In this document: piece by piece, positions 4,005 through 38,865 of the stretch
Position numbering within the stretch: position 1 is the stretch's first letter
Layout of the letters: each line of letters opens with the position of its first letter
IMG/VR virus record: IMGVR_UViG_3300017991_000051
Coordinates: 1-64,000 of that record
Length of the DNA: 64,000 bases
Reading direction: 5' to 3' (one strand)
DNA from: a virus
Translations under genes and position numbers: made by a program
Notes under the pieces: model-generated
Seen by the model: the letters and a program-made list of their open reading frames with translations, nothing else
Told to the model about the DNA's origin: nothing
The model's database searches: none

Positions 4005-5048
4005 TTATTTTGCTGCCAAGCGGCCGGCATCACCGTGCACGGGCCACCCGAAGTCGGCACGTCGCCACTTCATTGTATGACCGAGTTTTTCGATCACGTA
4101 CAGCTCCCTCGTGGGCAGACCCTCGTGGGTACGCCACTGTTCCCATAGGTGCGCAAGAAACACCTTCTTCACAATGCGCAGGGCAGCGAAGTAGCACCGG
4201 CCTTTGGGCCAGTCTTCCTTCTTGTCGTACTTCGCCCGCGCCTCATCGTAGACCCGGCGGTAGTGATAACCATCACCCGTCCGGATCAAACTCTCTGCGA
4301 TCTGATGCATGGTCACCTTCAACCGTGCGTTGTAGTGCAGGACTTCCCCTGCCACCGCGCGCTCAGCCGAGCGCCCGAGGGCAACGAGTTTCCCGTCCTT
4401 GATAAGCTGTCCGACGCTGACACCCTCGCCGAAGCGGGGGACGCTGACGAACAGTCGGTTCTTCTCCGTGTGGTAGGTGTACTTCTTACCGCCCTCGTCC
4501 ACGACTTGGGAGTGCATCCACTCGTCGGGCTCGCACGGAGTAACCTTCTTCGCCTTGATGAGGGCCTCTACGGTCTTGCCCCCGAAAGCTTCCTTCTTCG
4601 TGGTGAGGACATCGGAGTCCTGAGTGTACGGGTACTTCGCGTACTTACCATCCTTGTTCTTCTCCGCCTCGCGAGCCCACAACACCGGCGCATAGCCGGA
4701 GAAGCGCCACAACTTGCTGACGGTATCGGAACGGAAGATGTTGATGAGGACATACAGCTTCGCCGCCGAAAAGTAATCGATACCCTTCAGCTCCACGAGA
4801 TCCTCAACGATATGTACACCCTTCACGAGGCCGATCACGTCGCTGCGCAGAGACTTCTCCGTCTCCGCGAACTGCGTGAGGTACTTCTCCAACAGCGCCC
4901 TCTGCGCCGGGTCAGTACTGTCGTCGGCACCCTGCATGATCGCCCTTATCTGACTCTCGAGCCTGCAGCGATCCTTCTGGAACTGCCAGAATGTATCCAG
5001 CAGCGTTCTGGTGATGGCTCGTCCTCTATGCCAGTCCATGAATCCCAT
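4005..5048 (-). CDS. protein with transposase_20 (IS110 C-terminal)-like region
   Basis: The start ATG at 5048 overlaps the stop of the upstream gene (TAATG), with AAGGAGG ten bases away; a longer frame exists but is less likely. Within the 347 aa, the segment LVELKGIDYFSAAKLYVLI, followed by an F-S-G-Y-A-P stretch, resembles the helix-hairpin-helix C-terminal domain of IS110/IS116 transposases. I see no DEDD RuvC-like N-terminal domain, so it is probably a domesticated DNA-binding protein rather than a transposase. The C-terminus is RLAAK. The family call is tentative. Confidence 0.5.
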   Translation of the reverse strand: MGFMDWHRGRAITRTLLDTFWQFQKDRCRLESQIRAIMQGADDSTDPAQRALLEKYLTQFAETEKSLRSDVIGLVKGVHIVEDLVELKGIDYFSAAKLYVLINIFRSDTVSKLWRFSGYAPVLWAREAEKNKDGKYAKYPYTQDSDVLTTKKEAFGGKTVEALIKAKKVTPCEPDEWMHSQVVDEGGKKYTYHTEKNRLFVSVPRFGEGVSVGQLIKDGKLVALGRSAERAVAGEVLHYNARLKVTMHQIAESLIRTGDGYHYRRVYDEARAKYDKKEDWPKGRCYFAALRIVKKVFLAHLWEQWRTHEGLPTRELYVIEKLGHTMKWRRADFGWPVHGDAGRLAAK

Positions 5049-5458
5049 TACTGATCGTCCTCCTTCTCCAACGTGACTGCACGCTTCTCCGGTGGAATTA
5101 CCAGACGCACGTCCCGCAGCCACTGCGGTTTGTAATACCCTTTGAGATGGTTCCACAACTCGACGACGTCGACGATGCTCTTCCCCGTGAACTCAACGTC
5201 CCACGCTGCCTCCCGGTGCGTACCCGACTGTTTGTTGCGTACCTTCCCCCAGCGTAGACGCTGGGCCGACAACTTCCTCCCGATCTTCTTCGAGAAGAGG
5301 TCGAGCGGAGAACAGTACGCGAATGCGATCCGGATCATTCCCTCCGGAATCGCTGGCGTCTCCTCCGACGCCTCCTTCGGTCCGATCGCATAAGCGGCGG
5401 TGATGATGCCGTTGTGCTTCGCCCCGTTCGTTCGTCCGAAATAGTAGTGACCGATCAT
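5048..5458 (-). CDS. hypothetical protein, 136 aa
   Basis: Starts at ATG 5458 (MIGHYYFGRT), with GGAGG ten bases upstream. The frame is open to 5491. Contains many aromatic and basic residues, no motif known to me. Its stop overlaps the start of the next gene, so the two are probably translationally coupled. Confidence 0.6.
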   Translation of the reverse strand: MIGHYYFGRTNGAKHNGIITAAYAIGPKEASEETPAIPEGMIRIAFAYCSPLDLFSKKIGRKLSAQRLRWGKVRNKQSGTHREAAWDVEFTGKSIVDVVELWNHLKGYYKPQWLRDVRLVIPPEKRAVTLEKEDDQ

Positions 5459-5556
5459 TTCCTTTACTCCTCCGGTATCTTGCGTATCCATGTATGACTG
5501 CGGAGACGCTCGAATACCGCTTCCAACGGTTCTGACTGTACGTCAACGGACACTTC

Positions 5557-5703
5557 TCATCCGTCTCCCAACTTGAAATACCGATGCAGGTGGTAGCCAT
5601 GCTCACCCTGCAGTACGACGAAGAGGAGCGACAAGGTGTCCGGTATCTCAACCAGCAACTTGAGGCTCTTCTCCCACTGTTTTCTCAGTTTGCGAAGCGA
5701 CAT
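5557..5703 (-). CDS. small protein, 48 aa
   Basis: ATG at 5703 follows a near-perfect AGGAGGAACT. The product starts MSLRKLRKQWEKSLKLLVEI and is basic with a Leu/Val-rich centre. Function unknown. A GC-rich hairpin ends about 20 bases upstream of the start. Confidence 0.6.
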   Translation of the reverse strand: MSLRKLRKQWEKSLKLLVEIPDTLSLLFVVLQGEHGYHLHRYFKLGDG

Positions 5704-5713
5704 AGTTCCTCCT

Positions 5714-5750
5714 GAAAAGTGAAGGCCCGGCGGGCGTAACCCGCCGAGCC
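5714..5750 (-). terminator. hairpin with T-rich tail upstream of the 48-aa gene
   Basis: The minus strand reads a GGCTCGGCGGG / CCCGCCGGGCC stem with tail TTCACTTTT. It may terminate transcription or cap the 5' end of the next message. Confidence 0.5.
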
Positions 5751-5862
5751 GTTTAGGTCCGCCCAGGCAAGATTCATCTCATTCCCGCGGTTGCCATCGC
5801 GGCTGAGGTCAGTTCATTCTGCGAGGCGGGGAGGCTTTGCCAGACCAACCAGCCCCGATCGT

Positions 5863-5900
5863 AAATAGGCCCGGGAGGTTTAATGTCGCCCGGGTCGACA
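5863..5900 (-). ncRNA. isolated copy of the pseudoknot element
   Basis: The minus strand contains GTCG-A-CCCGGG-CGAC-linker-CCCGGG, the same H-type pseudoknot as the 7.6-8.8 kb array (stem 1 GTCG/CGAC, stem 2 CCCGGG/CCCGGG). Confidence 0.6.
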
Positions 5901-5949
5901 TCTGCGCCTTTACCTACGAATGCCACAACGTAGATATTGTCTGGTAAAT

Positions 5950-5979
5950 AGGGAGCCCAGCGGGCGTGAACCCGCTGGG
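5950..5979 (-). terminator. hairpin after the 5988 gene
   Basis: CCCAGCGGG-ttcacg-CCCGCTGGG followed by CTCCCTATTT on the minus strand. A sister hairpin with nearly the same loop lies at 8846. Confidence 0.5.
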
Positions 5980-5987
5980 GTGAAAAA

Positions 5988-6542
5988 CTACTTGGCTGCT
6001 TTACGTACCAGCCTACGGAACAGCTTGTTTGCCTCTGCACGCACGCCCGCCAGCTCGCTGAGCGTACGATATTTGTTGATGAATGCCCGCAACTCGAGTA
6101 GAGCCTCATCGAGAACGTTGTAGCGTTCAATTGGGTCCGAAAGGCTCTGGCTCTCTGATGCGTACACACGGACCGGTCTTCCCGACCCACCAACCAACCC
6201 TGTATGGATCATCGCGGTTACGCGCCAGCTACGCTCTTCCTCTTCACCGTTCGCACGGATGACTACCTTCGTCACTGCGGCCATGATGTACTTGGCTTGT
6301 GACTCCCAGCACGTCTGTGCAGCTTGATGTATATTCCACGTGAACTCGGCGTGGAGCGGACACTTCGGATCCTTCGCCAACTCGACGACATCCCTCACAG
6401 TGTACTTCTTTTTGTTAGCCAGTTTGTCGATGAACTGACCAATCTTTTGGATATCGCCCTTGACGTGGTAGCCAGATCGCTTACGGTATTCGATACGCGC
6501 CCGGCGCCGCGTAGATTTCTTCGCCTTCTTCTTTGTAGCCAT
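5988..6542 (-). CDS. hypothetical basic protein, 184 aa
   Basis: ATG at 6542 follows AAAGGGATACG. Residues 1-25 are a Lys/Arg-rich tail (MATKKKAKKSTRRRARIEYR), suggesting nucleic-acid contact. The middle holds a Trp/His-rich segment and the protein ends RKAAK. No family recognised. Confidence 0.65.
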   Translation of the reverse strand: MATKKKAKKSTRRRARIEYRKRSGYHVKGDIQKIGQFIDKLANKKKYTVRDVVELAKDPKCPLHAEFTWNIHQAAQTCWESQAKYIMAAVTKVVIRANGEEEERSWRVTAMIHTGLVGGSGRPVRVYASESQSLSDPIERYNVLDEALLELRAFINKYRTLSELAGVRAEANKLFRRLVRKAAK

Positions 6543-6567
6543 CGTATCCCTTTCTCAGCATTGTTGG

Positions 6568-6601
6568 GAGGGGGCCGGCACAATGAGTGCCGACCCCCTC
6601 G
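6568..6601 (-). terminator. GC-rich hairpin without T-tract
   Basis: GAGGGGGTCGGCAC ... GTGCCGGCCCCCTC, an almost perfect 14-bp stem just after the 6611 gene. It lacks a T-run and may be an mRNA-end stabiliser. Confidence 0.45.
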
Positions 6602-6610
6602 GAAATGGAC

Positions 6611-7360
6611 TTACTTCGCAGCCTTCTTCGTCAGCTGTGAAGGCGGCGTGAAGTAATGCAACGGAATCTCACCGTCCTTCTTCACGCGCGCAACCGCGTC
6701 CTTCATCTGCTTCTGGAACAGCTTCTCGTCCGCGGCGCCGGTACCGACATGGAACAGGCCGTACTGGCCAGTACCCGTGCTGGTCTTGCCCTGCGGGCGC
6801 CAGTCGCCGATCCCTACGTGGAAACCAGCGTGCTGGATCAGATTCAACACCTGTTCCTTATTCAGAACATTGGCGTTGAAGTTGATGGTCGCCGTGATCT
6901 TCCACGGCCAAAACTGCGGCCGGTAGCGAAGATCCATGACACCGCTCGCTAAGCGGACGGTATCCTCACGGCATGTACGCACGCCTTCGATATGCACCAA
7001 CGCACCCAGTGGGTCGTCGGCGTCGAACTGGACGAAGCACGCGCCCTTCGTCTGGGCCATGGCTACGCCATCGACGTACCGGCACGCCTCGATCATGCTC
7101 TTCTTGATGCAGATCGCGGGGATGCCGAAGCTGCCATCGGGAAACCAGTAGGTTGCCTGATGGTACTCCCCTTGAACGTCGCGGTCGGATTTGGCCAGTT
7201 TCGGCCAGCCCTGCTGCTTCGACCGAATGGAGTTCTTACTGGTGTCCGTCGGCTGGTTGGTGATGAGTGGAGAGTCACCGTACATGATGTACTCCGCCAT
7301 CTCCCGAACCATCTTCGGGACGTCGATTATTGCTGCTTGTTGTTTTGCTTTCGCTGGCAT
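6611..7360 (-). CDS. phage protein with C-terminal GxGDWRP...G motif
   Basis: Starts ATG 7360 (MPAKAKQQAA), with AAAGG nine bases upstream. The 249-aa protein carries FGIPAICIKKSMIEACRY near residue 90 and, at the end, HVGIGDWRPQ followed by a Gly-rich GQYGLFHV. The same layout (a 'PA..i..' segment, a long beta-rich middle, then a G-rich loop before an aromatic strand) recurs in the 58209 and 58814 genes, so I read the three as paralogues. The G-rich end recalls RAMP/Cas7 proteins, but that is inference. Ends KKAAK. Confidence 0.6.
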   Translation of the reverse strand: MPAKAKQQAAIIDVPKMVREMAEYIMYGDSPLITNQPTDTSKNSIRSKQQGWPKLAKSDRDVQGEYHQATYWFPDGSFGIPAICIKKSMIEACRYVDGVAMAQTKGACFVQFDADDPLGALVHIEGVRTCREDTVRLASGVMDLRYRPQFWPWKITATINFNANVLNKEQVLNLIQHAGFHVGIGDWRPQGKTSTGTGQYGLFHVGTGAADEKLFQKQMKDAVARVKKDGEIPLHYFTPPSQLTKKAAK

Positions 7361-7488
7361 CGATGTACCTTTCGTAGTTGTAGGACCGCACAGAATCACA
7401 ATCGCTCCGCGCTAATCCAATAGTTGTTCGATACACTCGTCAACACCTGTACCCTGTAGCTTTACCTCCTTTCATTGGGTGGGTTGAG

Positions 7489-7520
7489 GGCGGAGGGACC
7501 AGATGTTACGTCCCTCCGCC
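7489..7520 (-). terminator. hairpin in the 7361-7609 non-coding stretch
   Basis: GGCGGAGGGAC ... GGTCCCTCCGCC stem. The rest of 7361-7609 holds no convincing gene. An AAAGGAGG at about 7464-7471 has no ATG after it. Confidence 0.4.
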
Positions 7521-7609
7521 ATACTTACCTGAACGGGCCGGGCCGGACCTTGACTCGGCTAACCTTGCAACTGCATTCCACGCGGCTGACCAGCCTCCAT
7601 AGATAAGTA

Positions 7610-8772
7610 GGCCTGGGGTTTAGCGTCTCCCAGGAAGACACAACCGTCCTCGACGGGCCCCCGCCTGTCCCCTCATCACGGCGGCTAACAGCACCACGTC
7701 AAATCCGTAGCAGAAAATGGATCTGGGGTTTTGCGTCTCCCAGAAGGACAGAACAACACAAGGACTGACGAGGCCATAACTCACCGTCCTCACAGTAGCA
7801 GGCCTTACCCGACCCGACCTTTCCGTATCAGAAAAATAGGCCCGGGTTGTTTAGCGTCGCCTGGGACGACAAAAACTCACCCGACCTTTCCGTCATCAAC
7901 ATGCCGTGACGTTCGCCTACAAACGAGGCCACACCTTATCAAAATGAAATTGGCCTGGGGTTTTGCGTCTCCCAGGAAGACAGCACGAAACTAGCCCGAC
8001 AGTACCCGACACCAACCTAACTTACCCAGCCTCTACACGCGCAGCCGTGTCAAACGAAATAGGCCCGGGGTTTCGCGTCTCCCGGGAAGACAGGTACGTG
8101 GCCAGAACTAACCTCACGCACGACAACAGGCACGACCCGACCTGACCCAACCTGACCTCGTCAAAGAAAATAAGCCTAGGATGTTTAGCGTCGCCTAGGA
8201 CGACATCAACTCAACATACCGTGCCCGGCATGACCAGACTGCGCCGAACCCCGCCAAGCTGCACCAGGTCAAATGAAATAGGCCTGGGGTTTTACGTCTC
8301 CCAGGAAGACAAGTGGACGTACCTTGGCCGGCATTACCAGACCAAACTACGCCGCGGCAAGCCCGACCAAACCTCGTCAAATGAAATAGGCCCGGGGTTT
8401 CGCGTCTCCCGGGAAGACAATGCTCACAGCGCTATAGCATGCCGCAGCTCGCCCGAACAGGCGGCAACAGACCGAACCCAACGGCGCCCCTCCCAGCCGT
8501 GTCATAATAAATAAGCCCAGGGTTTTACGTCTCCTGGGAAGACAAGCTTTACGGACCCAGCCCGAACGTGCCTTACGAACGCTGACTTAACCAGCCTCTG
8601 CAGGCCGCCCCATACCTTAGCAAAGAAAGTAGGCCCGGGATTTAGCGTCTCCTGGGAAGACAGCTCGGGCCGTACCTTGCCGTCATTACCGTACTACACC
8701 ACGACTCAACTAGCCCGACCAAACCTCGTCAAATAAAATAGGCCCGGGATTTAGCGTCGCCCGGGACGACAT
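7610..8772 (-). repeat. array of 11 H-type RNA pseudoknot elements
   Basis: Eleven elements of about 32 bases lie at 7610-7640, 7721-7750, 7838-7871, 7951-7982, 8061-8092, 8172-8205, 8281-8311, 8388-8419, 8513-8544, 8631-8662 and 8740-8772. Reading the minus strand each is GTCK, one base, a 6-base arm, MGAC, a 7-9-base A-rich linker, then the complementary 6-base arm. Stem 1 varies GTCT/AGAC versus GTCG/CGAC, and stem 2 varies CCTGGG/CCCAGG, CCCGGG/CCCGGG, CCTAGG/CCTAGG, TCTGGG/CCCAGA. These paired changes show selection for structure. One-base loop 1, no loop 2 and an A-rich loop 3 is classic H-type pseudoknot geometry, which favours the minus strand, the same strand as the tmRNA upstream. 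The spacers (about 70-100 bases) are unrelated except for a recurrent TATTTCATTTGAC just after the knot. No coding gene is seen. Confidence 0.8.
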
Positions 8773-8845
8773 ACCCGTAACAAACCGAATCTTTCCATAG
8801 GCGAACCTACAGCGACGAACCCAGCCTAACCTAGTCAAATGAAAT

Positions 8846-8875
8846 AAGCCCGGCGGGCGTGAACCTGCCGGGCAG
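8846..8875 (-). terminator. hairpin between tmRNA and pseudoknot array
   Basis: GCCCGGCAGG-ttcac-gCCCGCCGGGC followed by TTATTT on the minus strand, about 85 bases after the tmRNA 3' end. It is a candidate tmRNA terminator. 8876-8960 shows nothing else. Confidence 0.5.
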
Positions 8876-8960
8876 CTAACGAAGAGGCCCGTTCCAGGGT
8901 CGGTCTACCTCGCGTCACGGGCCAACGACACGACGTCCGATTGATTTTTGTACAGAGGAA

Positions 8961-9318
8961 TGGAGCCGCTGGGAGTCGAACCCAGGTCCGTTCGAGAGTC
9001 ACCTAGTGACTCATTCACGTGCGTAGTCGCTGATCTGTATACGGCTCATGCGACAAGCCTCTCACGTCTTTCCGTGATTGCCAGCTCTCCCGCTTTTACA
9101 CCACTGTGTTCGGGTAAGCATCCCACACAGCCGGCGACCCGATGTCGTCGTCAGCACCCGCTATCGGGCGTCACCGGGCTGACGATGGTGGCCTAAGCCG
9201 CCATAGGTAGTGCTTCGTTATCGGCACTTGAATGTTTCCGGATGTTTAACGAGGCCAACCGGAGTCCTCGGCACGCAATCACACAGATCCTTCTCGACGT
9301 CGAATCCATTACGGCCCC
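8961..9318 (-). ncRNA. ssrA: transfer-messenger RNA (tmRNA)
   Basis: The 5' end GGGGCCG pairs with the 3' end CGGCTCC (7-bp acceptor stem, one G-U), followed by A73. CCA is not encoded (TTC follows), so it must be added after transcription. Hallmarks seen: ATGGATTCGACG after the 5' stem, TGCCGAGG and GGTTGGCCTCGTTAAA as in E. coli tmRNA, a T-arm GGGTTCGACTCCC, and a tag reading frame at 9193-9225 in the expected place. The tag reads ADNEALPMAA and stop (TAG). The central part holds several GC stems that could form the usual pseudoknots. tmRNA rescues stalled ribosomes and tags the nascent chain for ClpXP-type proteolysis. Phage-encoded copies are known but uncommon. Confidence 0.93.
9193..9225 (-). 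other. tmRNA tag-peptide reading frame
   Basis: GCC GAT AAC GAA GCA CTA CCT ATG GCG GCT TAG: resume codon GCC, tag ADNEALPMAA. It keeps the terminal Ala-Ala degron, but the residues before it (PM) are not the common YAL. Confidence 0.85.
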
Positions 9319-36684: not shown

Positions 36685-36903
36685 TTATGTTCGTTTCCAA
36701 AACCGCGTCGCGTTTTTCCAGCGTACGCGTTCGCGTTCCGTACCTGGCGCCTGGTCGTACCCCACTACCTTGCGCCCGCAAACTGGACAACACTGCTGGT
36801 CGTCCGTTATCGCCGCCCCGCAACATTGCGTGAACATCGTACTGTTTGTTCCCTGTGGCATTAGCGGCACTATATCAACGATAACATCTTCGTTATAGTG
36901 CAT
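36685..36903 (-). CDS. small zinc-ribbon protein, 72 aa
   Basis: ATG at 36903 follows GAGGAGG. CCGAAITDDQQCCPVCGR is a treble-Cys ribbon. The ribosome site lies inside the end of the 36906 gene. Confidence 0.6.
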   Translation of the reverse strand: MHYNEDVIVDIVPLMPQGTNSTMFTQCCGAAITDDQQCCPVCGRKVVGYDQAPGTERERVRWKNATRFWKRT

Positions 36904-36905
36904 GA

Positions 36906-37082
36906 TTACCTCCTCAGCTGTATCGCTGCTATAAACACAGTCGCAAACAATGCCCAGAAGAGCATCATCCCTATCGCATATTTTATTGCGTCACCATTAG
37001 TGGGACAGATATCCTGCGACGTACCGCGTTCCGGCCTGTTCACGCGTTCAGCGTTCCACCATTTTCTAAACCGATTTATCAC
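36906..37082 (-). CDS. small membrane protein, 58 aa, GTG start
   Basis: GTG at 37082 follows AAGGAGG with a five-base spacer. Basic N-terminus, then one transmembrane segment (IKYAIGMMLFWALFATVFIA) and a short basic tail. First gene after the cassette array in the minus-strand transcript; its ribosome site abuts attC site A. Topology suggests N-in. Confidence 0.65.
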   Translation of the reverse strand: MINRFRKWWNAERVNRPERGTSQDICPTNGDAIKYAIGMMLFWALFATVFIAAIQLRR

Positions 37083-37095
37083 TACTTCCTCCTTT

Positions 37096-37148
37096 CAACG
37101 CGAAGCTGAAGGCGACGCGGTAGATCGCGCGCCTTAGCTCAATCGTTG
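37096..37148 (+). other. attC site A (53-base family)
   Basis: Most divergent of the main family (CAACGCGAAG left end, AATCGTTG right end); loop TAGAT. It is the array boundary next to ordinary phage genes. Confidence 0.8.
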
Positions 37149-37358
37149 GAACTCTTGATGAATCTCAAAAGCGTAAATAGTTTTCAGTACGGCTATCACT
37201 GCCTCAATATGTGGCTTGGCCACAAACTTCGGTGTGCATACTTTTCCGTCTGGGCTATGCTTCCATTCGTCGGGGCTCTCGGCCCACGCTTCCAGCTGGC
37301 CGTCATCCAGCGTCTTGAAATGAAACTGCCAATCGTGTCGAGGTAAAACCGATAACAT
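37134..37358 (-). CDS. cassette protein, 74 aa
   Basis: ATG at 37358 lies eight bases from GGAGG. The stop lies inside attC A. Starts MLSVLPRHDWQFHFKTLDDG; no family known. It shares a 13-base divergent start region with the 37372 gene. Confidence 0.6.
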   Translation of the reverse strand: MLSVLPRHDWQFHFKTLDDGQLEAWAESPDEWKHSPDGKVCTPKFVAKPHIEAVIAVLKTIYAFEIHQEFQRLS

Positions 37359-37371
37359 AGGAGAATCCTCC
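37359..37371. promoter_or_regulatory. shared divergent ribosome-binding palindrome
   Basis: AGGAGAATCCTCC separates two divergent ATGs. AGGAG serves the plus gene and, on the other strand, GGAGG serves the minus gene, each with an eight-base spacer. Confidence 0.6.
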
Positions 37372-37605
37372 ATGGCTCAGGTTATGAATGAACATTGCAT
37401 GCGTTTTGCTGGGCAGCTCCATACCGTTAGTCAGACATGGGACGAATACCAGCTAACCGTAACGATCAGTCCACCATCTAAGCCACTGGCGAAACGATTG
37501 TCACAGTTGTTGACACCGACGAACCAGCTAATGCTGATTTTCAACGAAGGTGCTTGGGAGTTCCAACAAGGAGCTGAAGGCGACGCGGTAAACCGCGCGC
37601 CTTAG
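37372..37605 (+). CDS. cassette protein, 77 aa
   Basis: Plus-strand gene in the classic cassette direction, ending inside attC B (last residues EGDAVNRAP are attC-encoded). Starts MAQVMNEHCMRFAGQLHTVS. No family known. Confidence 0.6.
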   Translation: MAQVMNEHCMRFAGQLHTVSQTWDEYQLTVTISPPSKPLAKRLSQLLTPTNQLMLIFNEGAWEFQQGAEGDAVNRAP

Positions 37606-37616
37606 CTCAACCGTTG
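37564..37616 (+). other. attC site B (53-base family)
   Basis: CAACAAGGAGCTGAAGGCG arm, loop TAAAC, right end CAACCGTTG. Confidence 0.9.
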
Positions 37617-37627
37617 AAAGGTAAACA

Positions 37628-37918
37628 TTATGGAACTTGAACAGTGTTGTCAGAATCCGGCGTGTCCGGACAAAGGTGCCCCGCTACACACTTATACCAC
37701 GGAGCTAATGGCTCACGAGGATCCAGCTCTACCCACGTCTGACACAATAGCGGATACGGACCGCCCGACTTCTCACACAGAGTGTAGCCCAACTTTTCTA
37801 CTTCTTGTCTGCTCAGCTTGCGGTCTGACACGAATGTTTCATCATGAGACACAACTGCAATCGTCCGCCCGTCATCGTCCAGAACGGGGGTCACTTTTGT
37901 AACTTGTGCTGCAAACAT
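37628..37918 (-). CDS. cassette protein, 96 aa
   Basis: ATG at 37918 follows AAGGAGG with five bases between. Starts MFAAQVTKVTPVLDDDGRTI; a Cys pair (CVAGHLC) lies near the end. Lies opposite the 37630 frame. Function unknown. Confidence 0.6.
   Translation of the reverse strand: MFAAQVTKVTPVLDDDGRTIAVVSHDETFVSDRKLSRQEVEKLGYTLCEKSGGPYPLLCQTWVELDPREPLAPWYKCVAGHLCPDTPDSDNTVQVP
37630..37902 (+). CDS. possible cassette protein opposite the 37628 gene, 90 aa
   Basis: ATG 16 bases after the attC B crossover with AAAGG at eight bases. CCQNPACPDKG ... CSACG could be a zinc ribbon. Fully overlaps the minus gene; I prefer the minus one but cannot exclude both. Confidence 0.4.
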   Translation: MELEQCCQNPACPDKGAPLHTYTTELMAHEDPALPTSDTIADTDRPTSHTECSPTFLLLVCSACGLTRMFHHETQLQSSARHRPERGSLL

Positions 37919-37931
37919 TATAACCTCCTTT

Positions 37932-37984
37932 CAACAAGGAGCTGAAGGCGACGCGGTTGCCCGCGCGCCTTAGCTCAACCGTTG
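37932..37984 (+). other. attC site C (53-base family)
   Basis: Loop TTGCC; otherwise identical to B. Confidence 0.9.
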
Positions 37985-38097
37985 TCTGCATTGAACTGGC
38001 GCTGTACTGGCTGCGCCATGATGATGTGCTGTGCTGCGTGAATCGCGCGGCGAAATTCGGTAGTTTCGTCGGAATGCACCGAGTTAAGTCGCACAAA

Positions 38098-38226
38098 CTA
38101 GTTCCATGCGTCTGCCAGTCTGCTCACGACCGAATTTTCGGCGGCAGACAACAAAGAGGTGGACGGCGACACGGAAACCGCGCCGACCTCCTCTGTTGCT
38201 TCGTTGCGTTGTTCAGCGGTTTCCAT
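38098..38226 (-). CDS. cassette peptide, 42 aa, start inside attC D
   Basis: ATG at 38226 lies eight bases after GGAGG, and both are part of the attC D stem. Starts METAEQRNEATEEVGAVSV; acidic. A further 35-codon GTG frame runs from 38076 toward site C without ribosome site. Function unknown. Confidence 0.5.
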   Translation of the reverse strand: METAEQRNEATEEVGAVSVSPSTSLLSAAENSVVSRLADAWN

Positions 38227-38247
38227 GCGCGTCACCTCCAGCGTTGG
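38149..38247 (+). other. attC site D (about 99 bases)
   Basis: AACAAAGAGGTGgACG pairs with CGTCACCTCCAGCGTT (lower-case base unpaired), and GGAAACCGC pairs with GCGGTTTCC further in. Confidence 0.7.
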
Positions 38248-38266
38248 CAATGAAAGGAATACAGAG

Positions 38267-38455
38267 ATGAAGTACGTTGTTTATCTTGTCGGCCTACCAG
38301 TTGAAAACGGTATAGAAATCCGAAGTGATGAGGATTTACTAACTCTGTTTCGACAGGACGCCGACCCAAATCGTATTATCTCCGTCTCCCGTTATAAACC
38401 AAACGACACACTACTCCGCGTGTCGTCTATCGCGCTTCTCTCCAAGAAAGATTGA
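38267..38455 (+). CDS. cassette protein, 62 aa
   Basis: ATG at 38267 follows AAAGGA at eight bases, 23 bases after the attC D crossover, the usual cassette layout. Starts MKYVVYLVGLPVENGIEIRS. Its end overlaps the minus 38411 gene by 45 bases. Function unknown. Confidence 0.55.
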   Translation: MKYVVYLVGLPVENGIEIRSDEDLLTLFRQDADPNRIISVSRYKPNDTLLRVSSIALLSKKD

Positions 38456-38584
38456 CGCGGCACGCTCAGCCGCGTTCGCAAGAGTAACTACGCGATCGAA
38501 AAACACCTTGTCCGGTTCTGCCGGATCTTTTTTACTGAGTTCACACTGAAGCACAATATTGAATCGTTCCTGCTTATAGTTCAT
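38411..38584 (-). CDS. cassette protein, 57 aa
   Basis: AGGAGG five bases before ATG at 38584; the start overlaps the previous stop (ATGA). Starts MNYKQERFNIVLQCELSKKD. Function unknown. Confidence 0.6.
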   Translation of the reverse strand: MNYKQERFNIVLQCELSKKDPAEPDKVFFDRVVTLANAAERAASIFLGEKRDRRHAE

Positions 38585-38865
38585 TTTAACCTCCTAATGA
38601 AATTGCCAACAACGCACTGCACGCTATCGGCGTAGGACGCCGAAGCGTGAGTGCAAACGTTCTGCTTTAGGGTTTCCAGCGCCACCAATGCTTCGTCAAT
38701 GTCGCGGATGTTCTCTTGCTCGGCGTCGTCACCGTCAAGGAAGCGTGCCATGTATGCTCTGGCTTTCCACGATTTCCGTGTGTCACGCAGCACCCGCTCG
38801 ATTGTGTGCAAAGCAGAACAATCGGATGGACAACTACCTTCATTCGCCGCGCTTCGCTTTCTCAT
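38581..38865 (-). CDS. cassette protein reading through attC E, 94 aa
   Basis: ATG at 38865 lies within attC F and the frame runs through all of attC E before stopping in the next cassette, so residues of about 69-87 are attC-encoded. Helical centre with many Asp/Glu; five Cys. The ribosome site is weak (AAAGGA, 13 bases). Confidence 0.5.
   Translation of the reverse strand: MRKRSAANEGSCPSDCSALHTIERVLRDTRKSWKARAYMARFLDGDDAEQENIRDIDEALVALETLKQNVCTHASASYADSVQCVVGNFIRRLK
38607..38661 (+). other. attC site E
   Basis: AACAACGCACTGCACGCTATCGGCG pairs with CGCCGAAGCGTGAGTGCAAACGTT; five-base loop. (Arms given as 38608-38632 and 38638-38661.). Confidence 0.75.

What the first reader, a model, noticed from the sequence alone, without database searches (positions are those of the whole stretch)
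7610..8772. Array of 11 covarying H-type RNA pseudoknots downstream of a tmRNA
Eleven short elements (plus one at 5863) keep two interlocking stems while the bases change in pairs: stem 1 GTCT/AGAC or GTCG/CGAC, stem 2 CCTGGG, CCCGGG, CCTAGG, TCTGGG each with its complement. Minus-strand geometry (loop 1 one base, loop 2 none, loop 3 A-rich 7-9 bases) is that of a stable pseudoknot. I know no described phage RNA like it. Roles could be RNA-end protection, protein sponge, tandem terminator or a multi-site decoy.
Basis: partly seen in the sequence, partly recalled or inferred. Interest (0 to 1): 0.9.

Follow-up and report, generated by a model that had tools for sequence, protein, structure and literature searches.

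The report
Phage guide-RNA array with pseudoknot tails
The repeated RNA knots are the fixed 3' ends of about a dozen guide RNAs of a VIPR system, a recently reported virus-borne relative of CRISPR, carried by a large, poorly known phage next to the gene for the protein that should use them.

Summary
In detail: 12 elements, all on the minus strand, keep two interlocking stems with paired base changes (97.7% of cells paired; 0 of 500 shuffles match). But the array is not a sponge, decoy or string of terminators. The stretches between the knots are 5-base tandem repeats (GGY/NN) on the same strand (summed over 11 guides 7.94, best of 1000 shuffles 6.27). The next gene downstream (6611-7360) is a Vipr protein: homologous to PDB 36pp 'SUSP1 Vipr' (profile E 1.3e-11) and folding like Cas7/Csm3 RAMPs. 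In 76 of 80 IMG/VR relatives of this protein the same tracts lie nearby, 389 of 390 on the vipr strand; 0 of 119 controls. So each unit is a ~100-nt vrRNA: leader, guide, pseudoknot tail. VIPR is known from one 2026 preprint. New here: SUSP1-like pseudoknot tails in a different Vipr clade whose other arrays are punctuated by a 4-base unit GGCA, a looser GGY scaffold, comparative support for the tail fold, and a TIGR-Tas gene beside it. Targets were sought and not found; transcription is untested.

The parts
8958..9318 (-). tmRNA (neighbour upstream of the array)
   Evidence: ARAGORN; Rfam RF00023 131.5 bits
8848..8873 (-). plain hairpin between tmRNA and the array, probable tmRNA terminator; followed by the same TTATTTCATTTGAC leader that precedes the guides
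8772..8836 (-). guide g1 (GGY/NN tract)
   Evidence: 0.744 in best phase, 0 of 1000 shuffles as high
8743..8771 (-). pseudoknot tail e1
8663..8727 (-). guide g2, one 4-nt unit
8634..8662 (-). pseudoknot tail e2 (one A.C mismatch in stem 2)
8545..8609 (-). guide g3, two 4-nt units
8516..8544 (-). pseudoknot tail e3
8420..8498 (-). guide g4
8391..8419 (-). pseudoknot tail e4
8312..8376 (-). guide g5
   Evidence: 0.861, 0 of 1000 shuffles
8283..8311 (-). pseudoknot tail e5
8206..8270 (-). guide g6, one of the cleanest tracts
   Evidence: 0.846, 0 of 1000 shuffles
8175..8205 (-). pseudoknot tail e6 (loop 3 two bases longer)
8093..8157 (-). guide g7
8064..8092 (-). pseudoknot tail e7
7983..8047 (-). 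guide g8
7954..7982 (-). pseudoknot tail e8
7872..7936 (-). guide g9 (weak, 36 of 1000 shuffles as high)
7841..7871 (-). pseudoknot tail e9 (A.C mismatch in stem 2)
7751..7815 (-). guide g10
7722..7750 (-). pseudoknot tail e10 (C.A mismatch in stem 1)
7641..7705 (-). guide g11
7612..7640 (-). pseudoknot tail e11
7525..7584 (-). probable further guide tract after e11, 28 of 36 GGY letters, without a pseudoknot tail
   Evidence: scan
7489..7520 (-). 12-bp hairpin closing the array
6611..7360 (-). vipr gene, RAMP protein of 249 aa
   Evidence: phmmer to 36pp_D E 4.9e-6; profile A6 E 1.3e-11; fold
5988..6542 (-). vap-like gene, 184 aa
   Evidence: BLASTP E 2e-7 to Saal gp52, also next to vipr; tblastn 22 of 88 VIPR loci, 0 of 119 controls
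5870..5900 (-). pseudoknot tail e12 downstream of vap; its upstream 52 nt is not a GGY/NN tract, probably a decayed vrRNA
   Evidence: 0.367; 984 of 1000 shuffles as high
4005..5156 (-). TIGR-Tas type gene, a neighbour and not shown to be part of the system
   Evidence: NF052498 132.4 bits, cutoff 100; TasH chain E 3.4e-6

Best explanation
It is the vrRNA array of a VIPR system. Each ~110-nt unit is one guide RNA: a short conserved leader (about TTATTTCATTTGAC), a tract of GGY/NN pentamers, and an H-type pseudoknot as fixed 3' tail. The Vipr protein from the gene just downstream should coat the tract as a RAMP filament, hold each GGY, and present the NN pairs to double-stranded DNA with one target base skipped per pair, repressing a competitor's genes; the tail caps the complex and probably protects or ends the RNA. 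Shown here: the repeats, the paired changes, the Vipr homology and fold, the association of this protein family with GGY/NN tracts. Inferred from PMC13142463: loading, 1-nt skip targeting, repression. Not known: the targets and the host.
For: 5-nt phase in the intervals: summed best-phase score 7.94 for 11 guides, highest of 1000 shuffles 6.27; in the scan of the seven pieces of the record 8 of the 9 windows reaching 27/36 lie in the array. Letter use over 155 units: G 0.72, G 0.72, Y 0.90, then two flat positions. Vipr: SUSP1 Vipr chain 36pp_D; model pLDDT 86.6; the Foldseek rows shown (50, of 59 at E 0.001 or less) are class 1 CRISPR effector chains; Z 10.1 to 9g9g_I over 148 residues. 76 of 80 relatives carry GGY/NN tracts at 26/30 or better, 389 of 390 on the vipr strand, 0 of 119 control loci. 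Eight of eight loci looked at singly (Saal, Pipp, ODay, Cy-LDV1, Trine, LESphi2, SUSP1, L005) have them. vap relative in 22 of 88 VIPR loci, 0 of 119 controls. SUSP1 tail GTAGT-T-AGTCTCA-GCTAC-ATTAAAA-TGAGACT has the same plan as TGTCT-T-CCCGGG-AGACG-CGAAAC-CCCGGG.
Against: The GGY scaffold is looser than in relatives (0.72/0.72/0.90 against 0.93/0.87/0.92); guides g9 and g10 are weak (36 and 15 of 1000 shuffles). The lone element at 5870 has no guide in front. The tail model matches none of 87 VIPR loci, and a geometric detector finds such tails after 2 of 533 tract ends in relatives, 5 of 533 in shuffles; it found the plan in only 2 of SUSP1's 4 tails and 10 of the window's 12. No target found: none of 11 guides above its null in the phage itself; g6 core hits extend by chance only; 120 hits for a g4 core, best flank 6 of 12. 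No transcript data.
Confidence: 0.93

Rival explanations
1. An array of bare structural RNAs that titrate a protein or protect RNA ends; the intervals are spacers without meaning.
For: The knots are the best conserved part, covary and have the geometry of stable H-type pseudoknots.
Against: Intervals have a strong 5-nt phase with two flat positions and a Vipr gene follows.
Confidence: 0.03
2. Tandem terminators of the phage's own RNA polymerase: stem 2 plus a T-rich tail.
For: Stem 2 is GC-rich and followed by CCTATTT; the tmRNA hairpin at 8848 has the same T-rich sequence after it.
Against: That sequence also occurs after a hairpin that is no pseudoknot, so it reads better as the leader of the next guide; eleven terminators in a row have no obvious purpose. 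Termination at each tail as part of the vrRNA remains possible.
Confidence: 0.03
3. Type III toxin-antitoxin RNA (ToxI-like tandem pseudoknots), kept or mimicked by the phage.
For: Tandem pseudoknots on one strand.
Against: Unit 106-125 nt and interrupted by GGY/NN tracts; no Pfam family in ten neighbouring proteins; the neighbour is a Vipr.
Confidence: 0.005
4. The guide array of the TIGR-Tas gene at 4005-5156 rather than of Vipr.
For: A Tas protein is encoded 2.5 kb away; some Tas clades use stem-loop arrays (PMC12045711, passages read).
Against: TIGR units are about 36 nt with two ~9-nt spacers; here the phase is 5 nt and the array adjoins vipr.
Confidence: 0.01

Closest known systems
VIPR of Escherichia phage SUSP1 (type II in PMC13142463)
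   Same: RAMP protein, ~100-nt units with GGY/NN tract and pseudoknot 3' tail of the same plan (5-bp stem 1, 1-nt loop 1, no loop 2, A-rich loop 3 of 6-8) in two of its four tails
   Different: Tail sequence unrelated; Vipr only 21% identical; vap not alike (BLASTP E 0.51); 11-12 guides instead of 4; looser GGY; some 4-nt units, none in SUSP1
VIPR-like loci of mycobacteriophage Saal, Gordonia phages Pipp and ODay and IMG/VR contigs L165, L166
   Same: Nearest Vipr proteins in the tree are L165, L166 and Saal; vap-like neighbour in several; GGY/NN tracts
   Different: Arrays of this group are largely continuous and punctuated by GGCA about every 8-13 units, without these tails
Class 1 CRISPR Cas7/Csm3
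   Same: Fold
   Different: No CRISPR repeats and no cas family among the neighbours scanned; the guide carries a 5-nt code
TIGR-Tas
   Same: Tas gene next door
   Different: Array architecture

Membership tests
VIPR | Vipr protein, an ancestral RAMP | tested here: met
   36pp_D E 4.9e-6 single, 1.3e-11 profile over positions 24-209; RAMP fold Z 10.1
VIPR | vrRNA of 9-16 GGY/NN pentamers | tested here: met
   relaxed consensus, 8 units of 4 nt
VIPR | Invariant 3' tail, pseudoknot in the SUSP1 clade | tested here: met
VIPR | Minimal locus vipr plus vap, phage-borne | tested here: met
   virus record; vap identity rests on homology to neighbours of other vipr genes
VIPR | ~100-nt vrRNAs expressed and bound to Vipr | not testable with these tools
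   No RNA data
VIPR | Targets follow the 1-nt skip rule | tested here: inconclusive
   No target found, few places searched
VIPR type II | Vipr phylogeny and vap1 of the SUSP1 type | tested here: inconclusive
   My tree of 52 puts it with L165, L166 and Saal, far from SUSP1; vap1 not alike; the preprint's type definitions in its supplement were not read
TIGR array | Dual repeats, 36-nt units | tested here: not met
   Units 106-125 nt with 5-nt phase; no tandem array of that period in the TRF list of the window
Type III toxin-antitoxin RNA | Uninterrupted ~36-nt pseudoknot repeats beside a ToxN-type toxin (recalled) | tested here: not met
   Spacing; no Pfam match in ten neighbours
Any Rfam family | Match to a curated model | tested here: not met
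   Gathering threshold: only tmRNA and a tRNA in the window; at E 10 over 5400-9000 no row falls on the knots except a 14.9-bit tmRNA_permuted hit at 8800-8989 upstream of them

The most novel reading that the evidence does not exclude
A separate VIPR architecture: in a Vipr clade whose other arrays are a long GGY/NN ribbon cut by GGCA marks, this phage has guides that are individually capped by pseudoknots like those of the remote SUSP1 clade (ancestral tail kept, or gained anew), with a looser scaffold and in-guide 4-nt units that would drop one NN base and so alter the skip rule locally.
Probability: 0.35. Interest if true: 0.72.

Novelty: new variant of a known kind. Interest (0 to 1): 0.62.

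Why it matters
VIPR rests on one preprint with few tested loci and a tail structure inferred there from folding. This locus gives paired base changes for the tail, an 11-12 guide array with single-unit resolution, and a Vipr from another clade with the SUSP1 tail plan, so it can separate what the tail does from what the tract does. Together with 80 relatives it shows that the GGY/NN tract is a reliable mark of the protein family. Two RNA-guided systems side by side (VIPR and TIGR-Tas) in one phage is unexpected.

Tried and rejected
Rfam, INPHARED blastn and Pfam gave nothing for the array or its neighbours. Knot pattern in IMG/VR: 3 single hits, taken as chance. Close relatives of the DNA polymerase and RNA polymerase subunit in IMG/VR: none. 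First model of Vipr from two sequences was useless (pLDDT 39.5). Targets: g4 and g6 cores in IMG/VR, 11 guides in the phage, six guides in the loci held: none; the other nine guides were not searched in IMG/VR for lack of scans. tRNA-like spacers, attC sites, CRISPR repeats and ribozymes were considered on reading and dropped once the 5-nt phase was seen. Papers: PMC13142463 main text read whole in four parts, its supplement not read; PMC12045711 passages only. Searches 'Vipr/phage/pseudoknot', 'vrRNA/VIPR/Vipr protein', 'Viral Interference Programmable Repeat' and 'phage/tandem/pseudoknot/noncoding RNA/tmRNA' showed no other paper on VIPR in this library.

Full report
WHAT WAS CLAIMED AND WHETHER IT IS THERE. 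They are there. Aligned, the copies read T-GTC[T/G]-T-CCYRGG-[A/C]GAC-G-YNAAAY(NN)-CCYRGG with few exceptions. On this alignment 97.7% of 132 cells pair, four pairs change on both sides in 12 cells, no shuffle of 500 reaches the pairing or covariation values, and every slid register falls to 55.3% or less. Stem 1 takes one more pair, U.G in 11 copies and U-A in the lone copy. Three copies carry one mismatch. The copies are paralogues in one genome, so the covariation is real but not independent of duplication.

WHAT LIES BETWEEN. The intervals were the clue. Read on the same strand they run GGT.GC AGC.TT GGC.GG GGT.TC GGC.GC AGT.CT GGT.CA and so on. Scored for GGY every five bases, the 11 intervals sum to 7.94 in their best phase; the highest of 1000 dinucleotide shuffles is 6.27. 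Singly, 5 of 11 exceed all 1000 shuffles, and the weakest is matched by 36 of 1000. Eight of the nine windows scoring 27/36 or more in the whole record, searched as seven pieces, lie in this array. Over 155 units the first three positions are G 0.72, G 0.72, Y 0.90 and the last two are flat. The stretch before the lone element at 5870 does not show the phase.

THE PROTEIN. The first gene after the array (6611-7360) matches PDB chain 36pp_D, 'SUSP1 Vipr protein', at E 4.9e-6. With a 45-sequence profile of its relatives the match covers nearly the whole chain at E 1.3e-11. A model from that alignment (pLDDT 86.6, pTM 0.81) is placed by Foldseek on class 1 CRISPR backbone proteins, and by VIA-align at Z 10.1 over 148 residues, 3.8 A. 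PMC13142463 describes VIPR: a RAMP protein plus ~100-nt vrRNAs of 9-16 GGY/NN pentamers and a 3' tail with a pseudoknot in the SUSP1 clade, which find double-stranded DNA through the NN pairs with one base skipped (main text read).

TESTS OF THAT READING. SUSP1 itself, fetched as control, gives four tracts of 30-35 of 36 GGY letters, one before and three after the two protein genes, where the preprint places its four vrRNAs, and two of its four tails fold by the same plan as here. Six further phage loci found with this Vipr, and contig L005, all have tracts. A search of IMG/VR found 156 relatives of which 80 were kept; 76 of 80 have tracts at 26/30 or better, 389 of 390 on the vipr strand, against 0 of 119 unrelated loci. 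The gene after vipr (5988-6542) is related to the gene after vipr in mycobacteriophage Saal (E 2e-7) and to a gene in 22 of 88 VIPR loci, 0 of 119 controls, so it is taken as the accessory gene (vap). It does not resemble SUSP1's second gene.

ANATOMY. On the minus strand the order is tmRNA, a plain hairpin, eleven units of leader + guide + pseudoknot, a probable further guide closed by a hairpin (7525-7584, 7489-7520), vipr, vap, a lone tail (5870-5900), and a Tas gene.

WHERE IT DIFFERS. In a tree of 52 proteins this Vipr sits deep among the Saal, L165 and L166 group and far from SUSP1. In 129 distinct arrays of that group, 4-nt units number 562 against ten of 6 nt; 471 of the 562 are GGCA, and successive ones are mostly 8-13 units apart: a punctuation mark between guides, as I read it. 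This phage has instead separate guides capped by pseudoknots, which the tail model finds in none of 87 VIPR loci and a geometric detector in 2 of 533 tract ends against 5 in shuffles. Its scaffold is looser, and its eight odd steps are all 4 nt, none 6 nt, where shuffled sequence gives both.

WHAT IS NOT SHOWN. No transcript, no binding, no target. The phage does not carry detectable targets of its own guides under the 1-nt skip rule. Two of 11 guides were tried against IMG/VR without a convincing hit. The host is unknown: no DNA match in INPHARED.

VERDICT. A real feature, explained: the vrRNA array of a VIPR system, in a variant form. The identity is strongly supported by sequence and fold; loading and targeting are carried over from the preprint.

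Noticed in passing
window 4005-5156 (-): A TIGR-Tas RNA-guided protein gene (NF052498, 132 bits) beside the VIPR locus; only copy in the record; no TIGR-like tandem array in the TRF list of the window.
   Followed up: partly
L165-L244: GGY/NN arrays of this Vipr clade are punctuated by a 4-nt unit, mostly GGCA followed by GGC, about every 8-13 pentamers; 562 units of 4 nt against 10 of 6 nt. The words tetranucleotide and four-nucleotide are absent from the preprint's main text.
   Followed up: partly
L173:3691-6576: A contig of 114 kb with 21 GGY/NN tracts in a nearly continuous array of about 2.9 kb after vipr.
   Followed up: no
L022:13789-15660 (-), record 137789-139660: A multi-subunit RNA polymerase subunit gene, about 28% identical to one of Salmonella phage Arash: the phage seems to bring its own transcription machinery.
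   Followed up: partly
window 5724-5750, 5956-5979, 8848-8873 (-): Three intergenic hairpins sharing the core GG(G)TT(C)ACGCCC with different but self-complementary outer stems.
   Followed up: partly
window 36865-38715: About 1.85 kb without any ORF of 100 aa or more in six frames.
   Followed up: no
window 8961-9318 (-): Phage tmRNA with predicted tag ADNEALPMAA; eight tRNA genes lie in L023.
   Followed up: no
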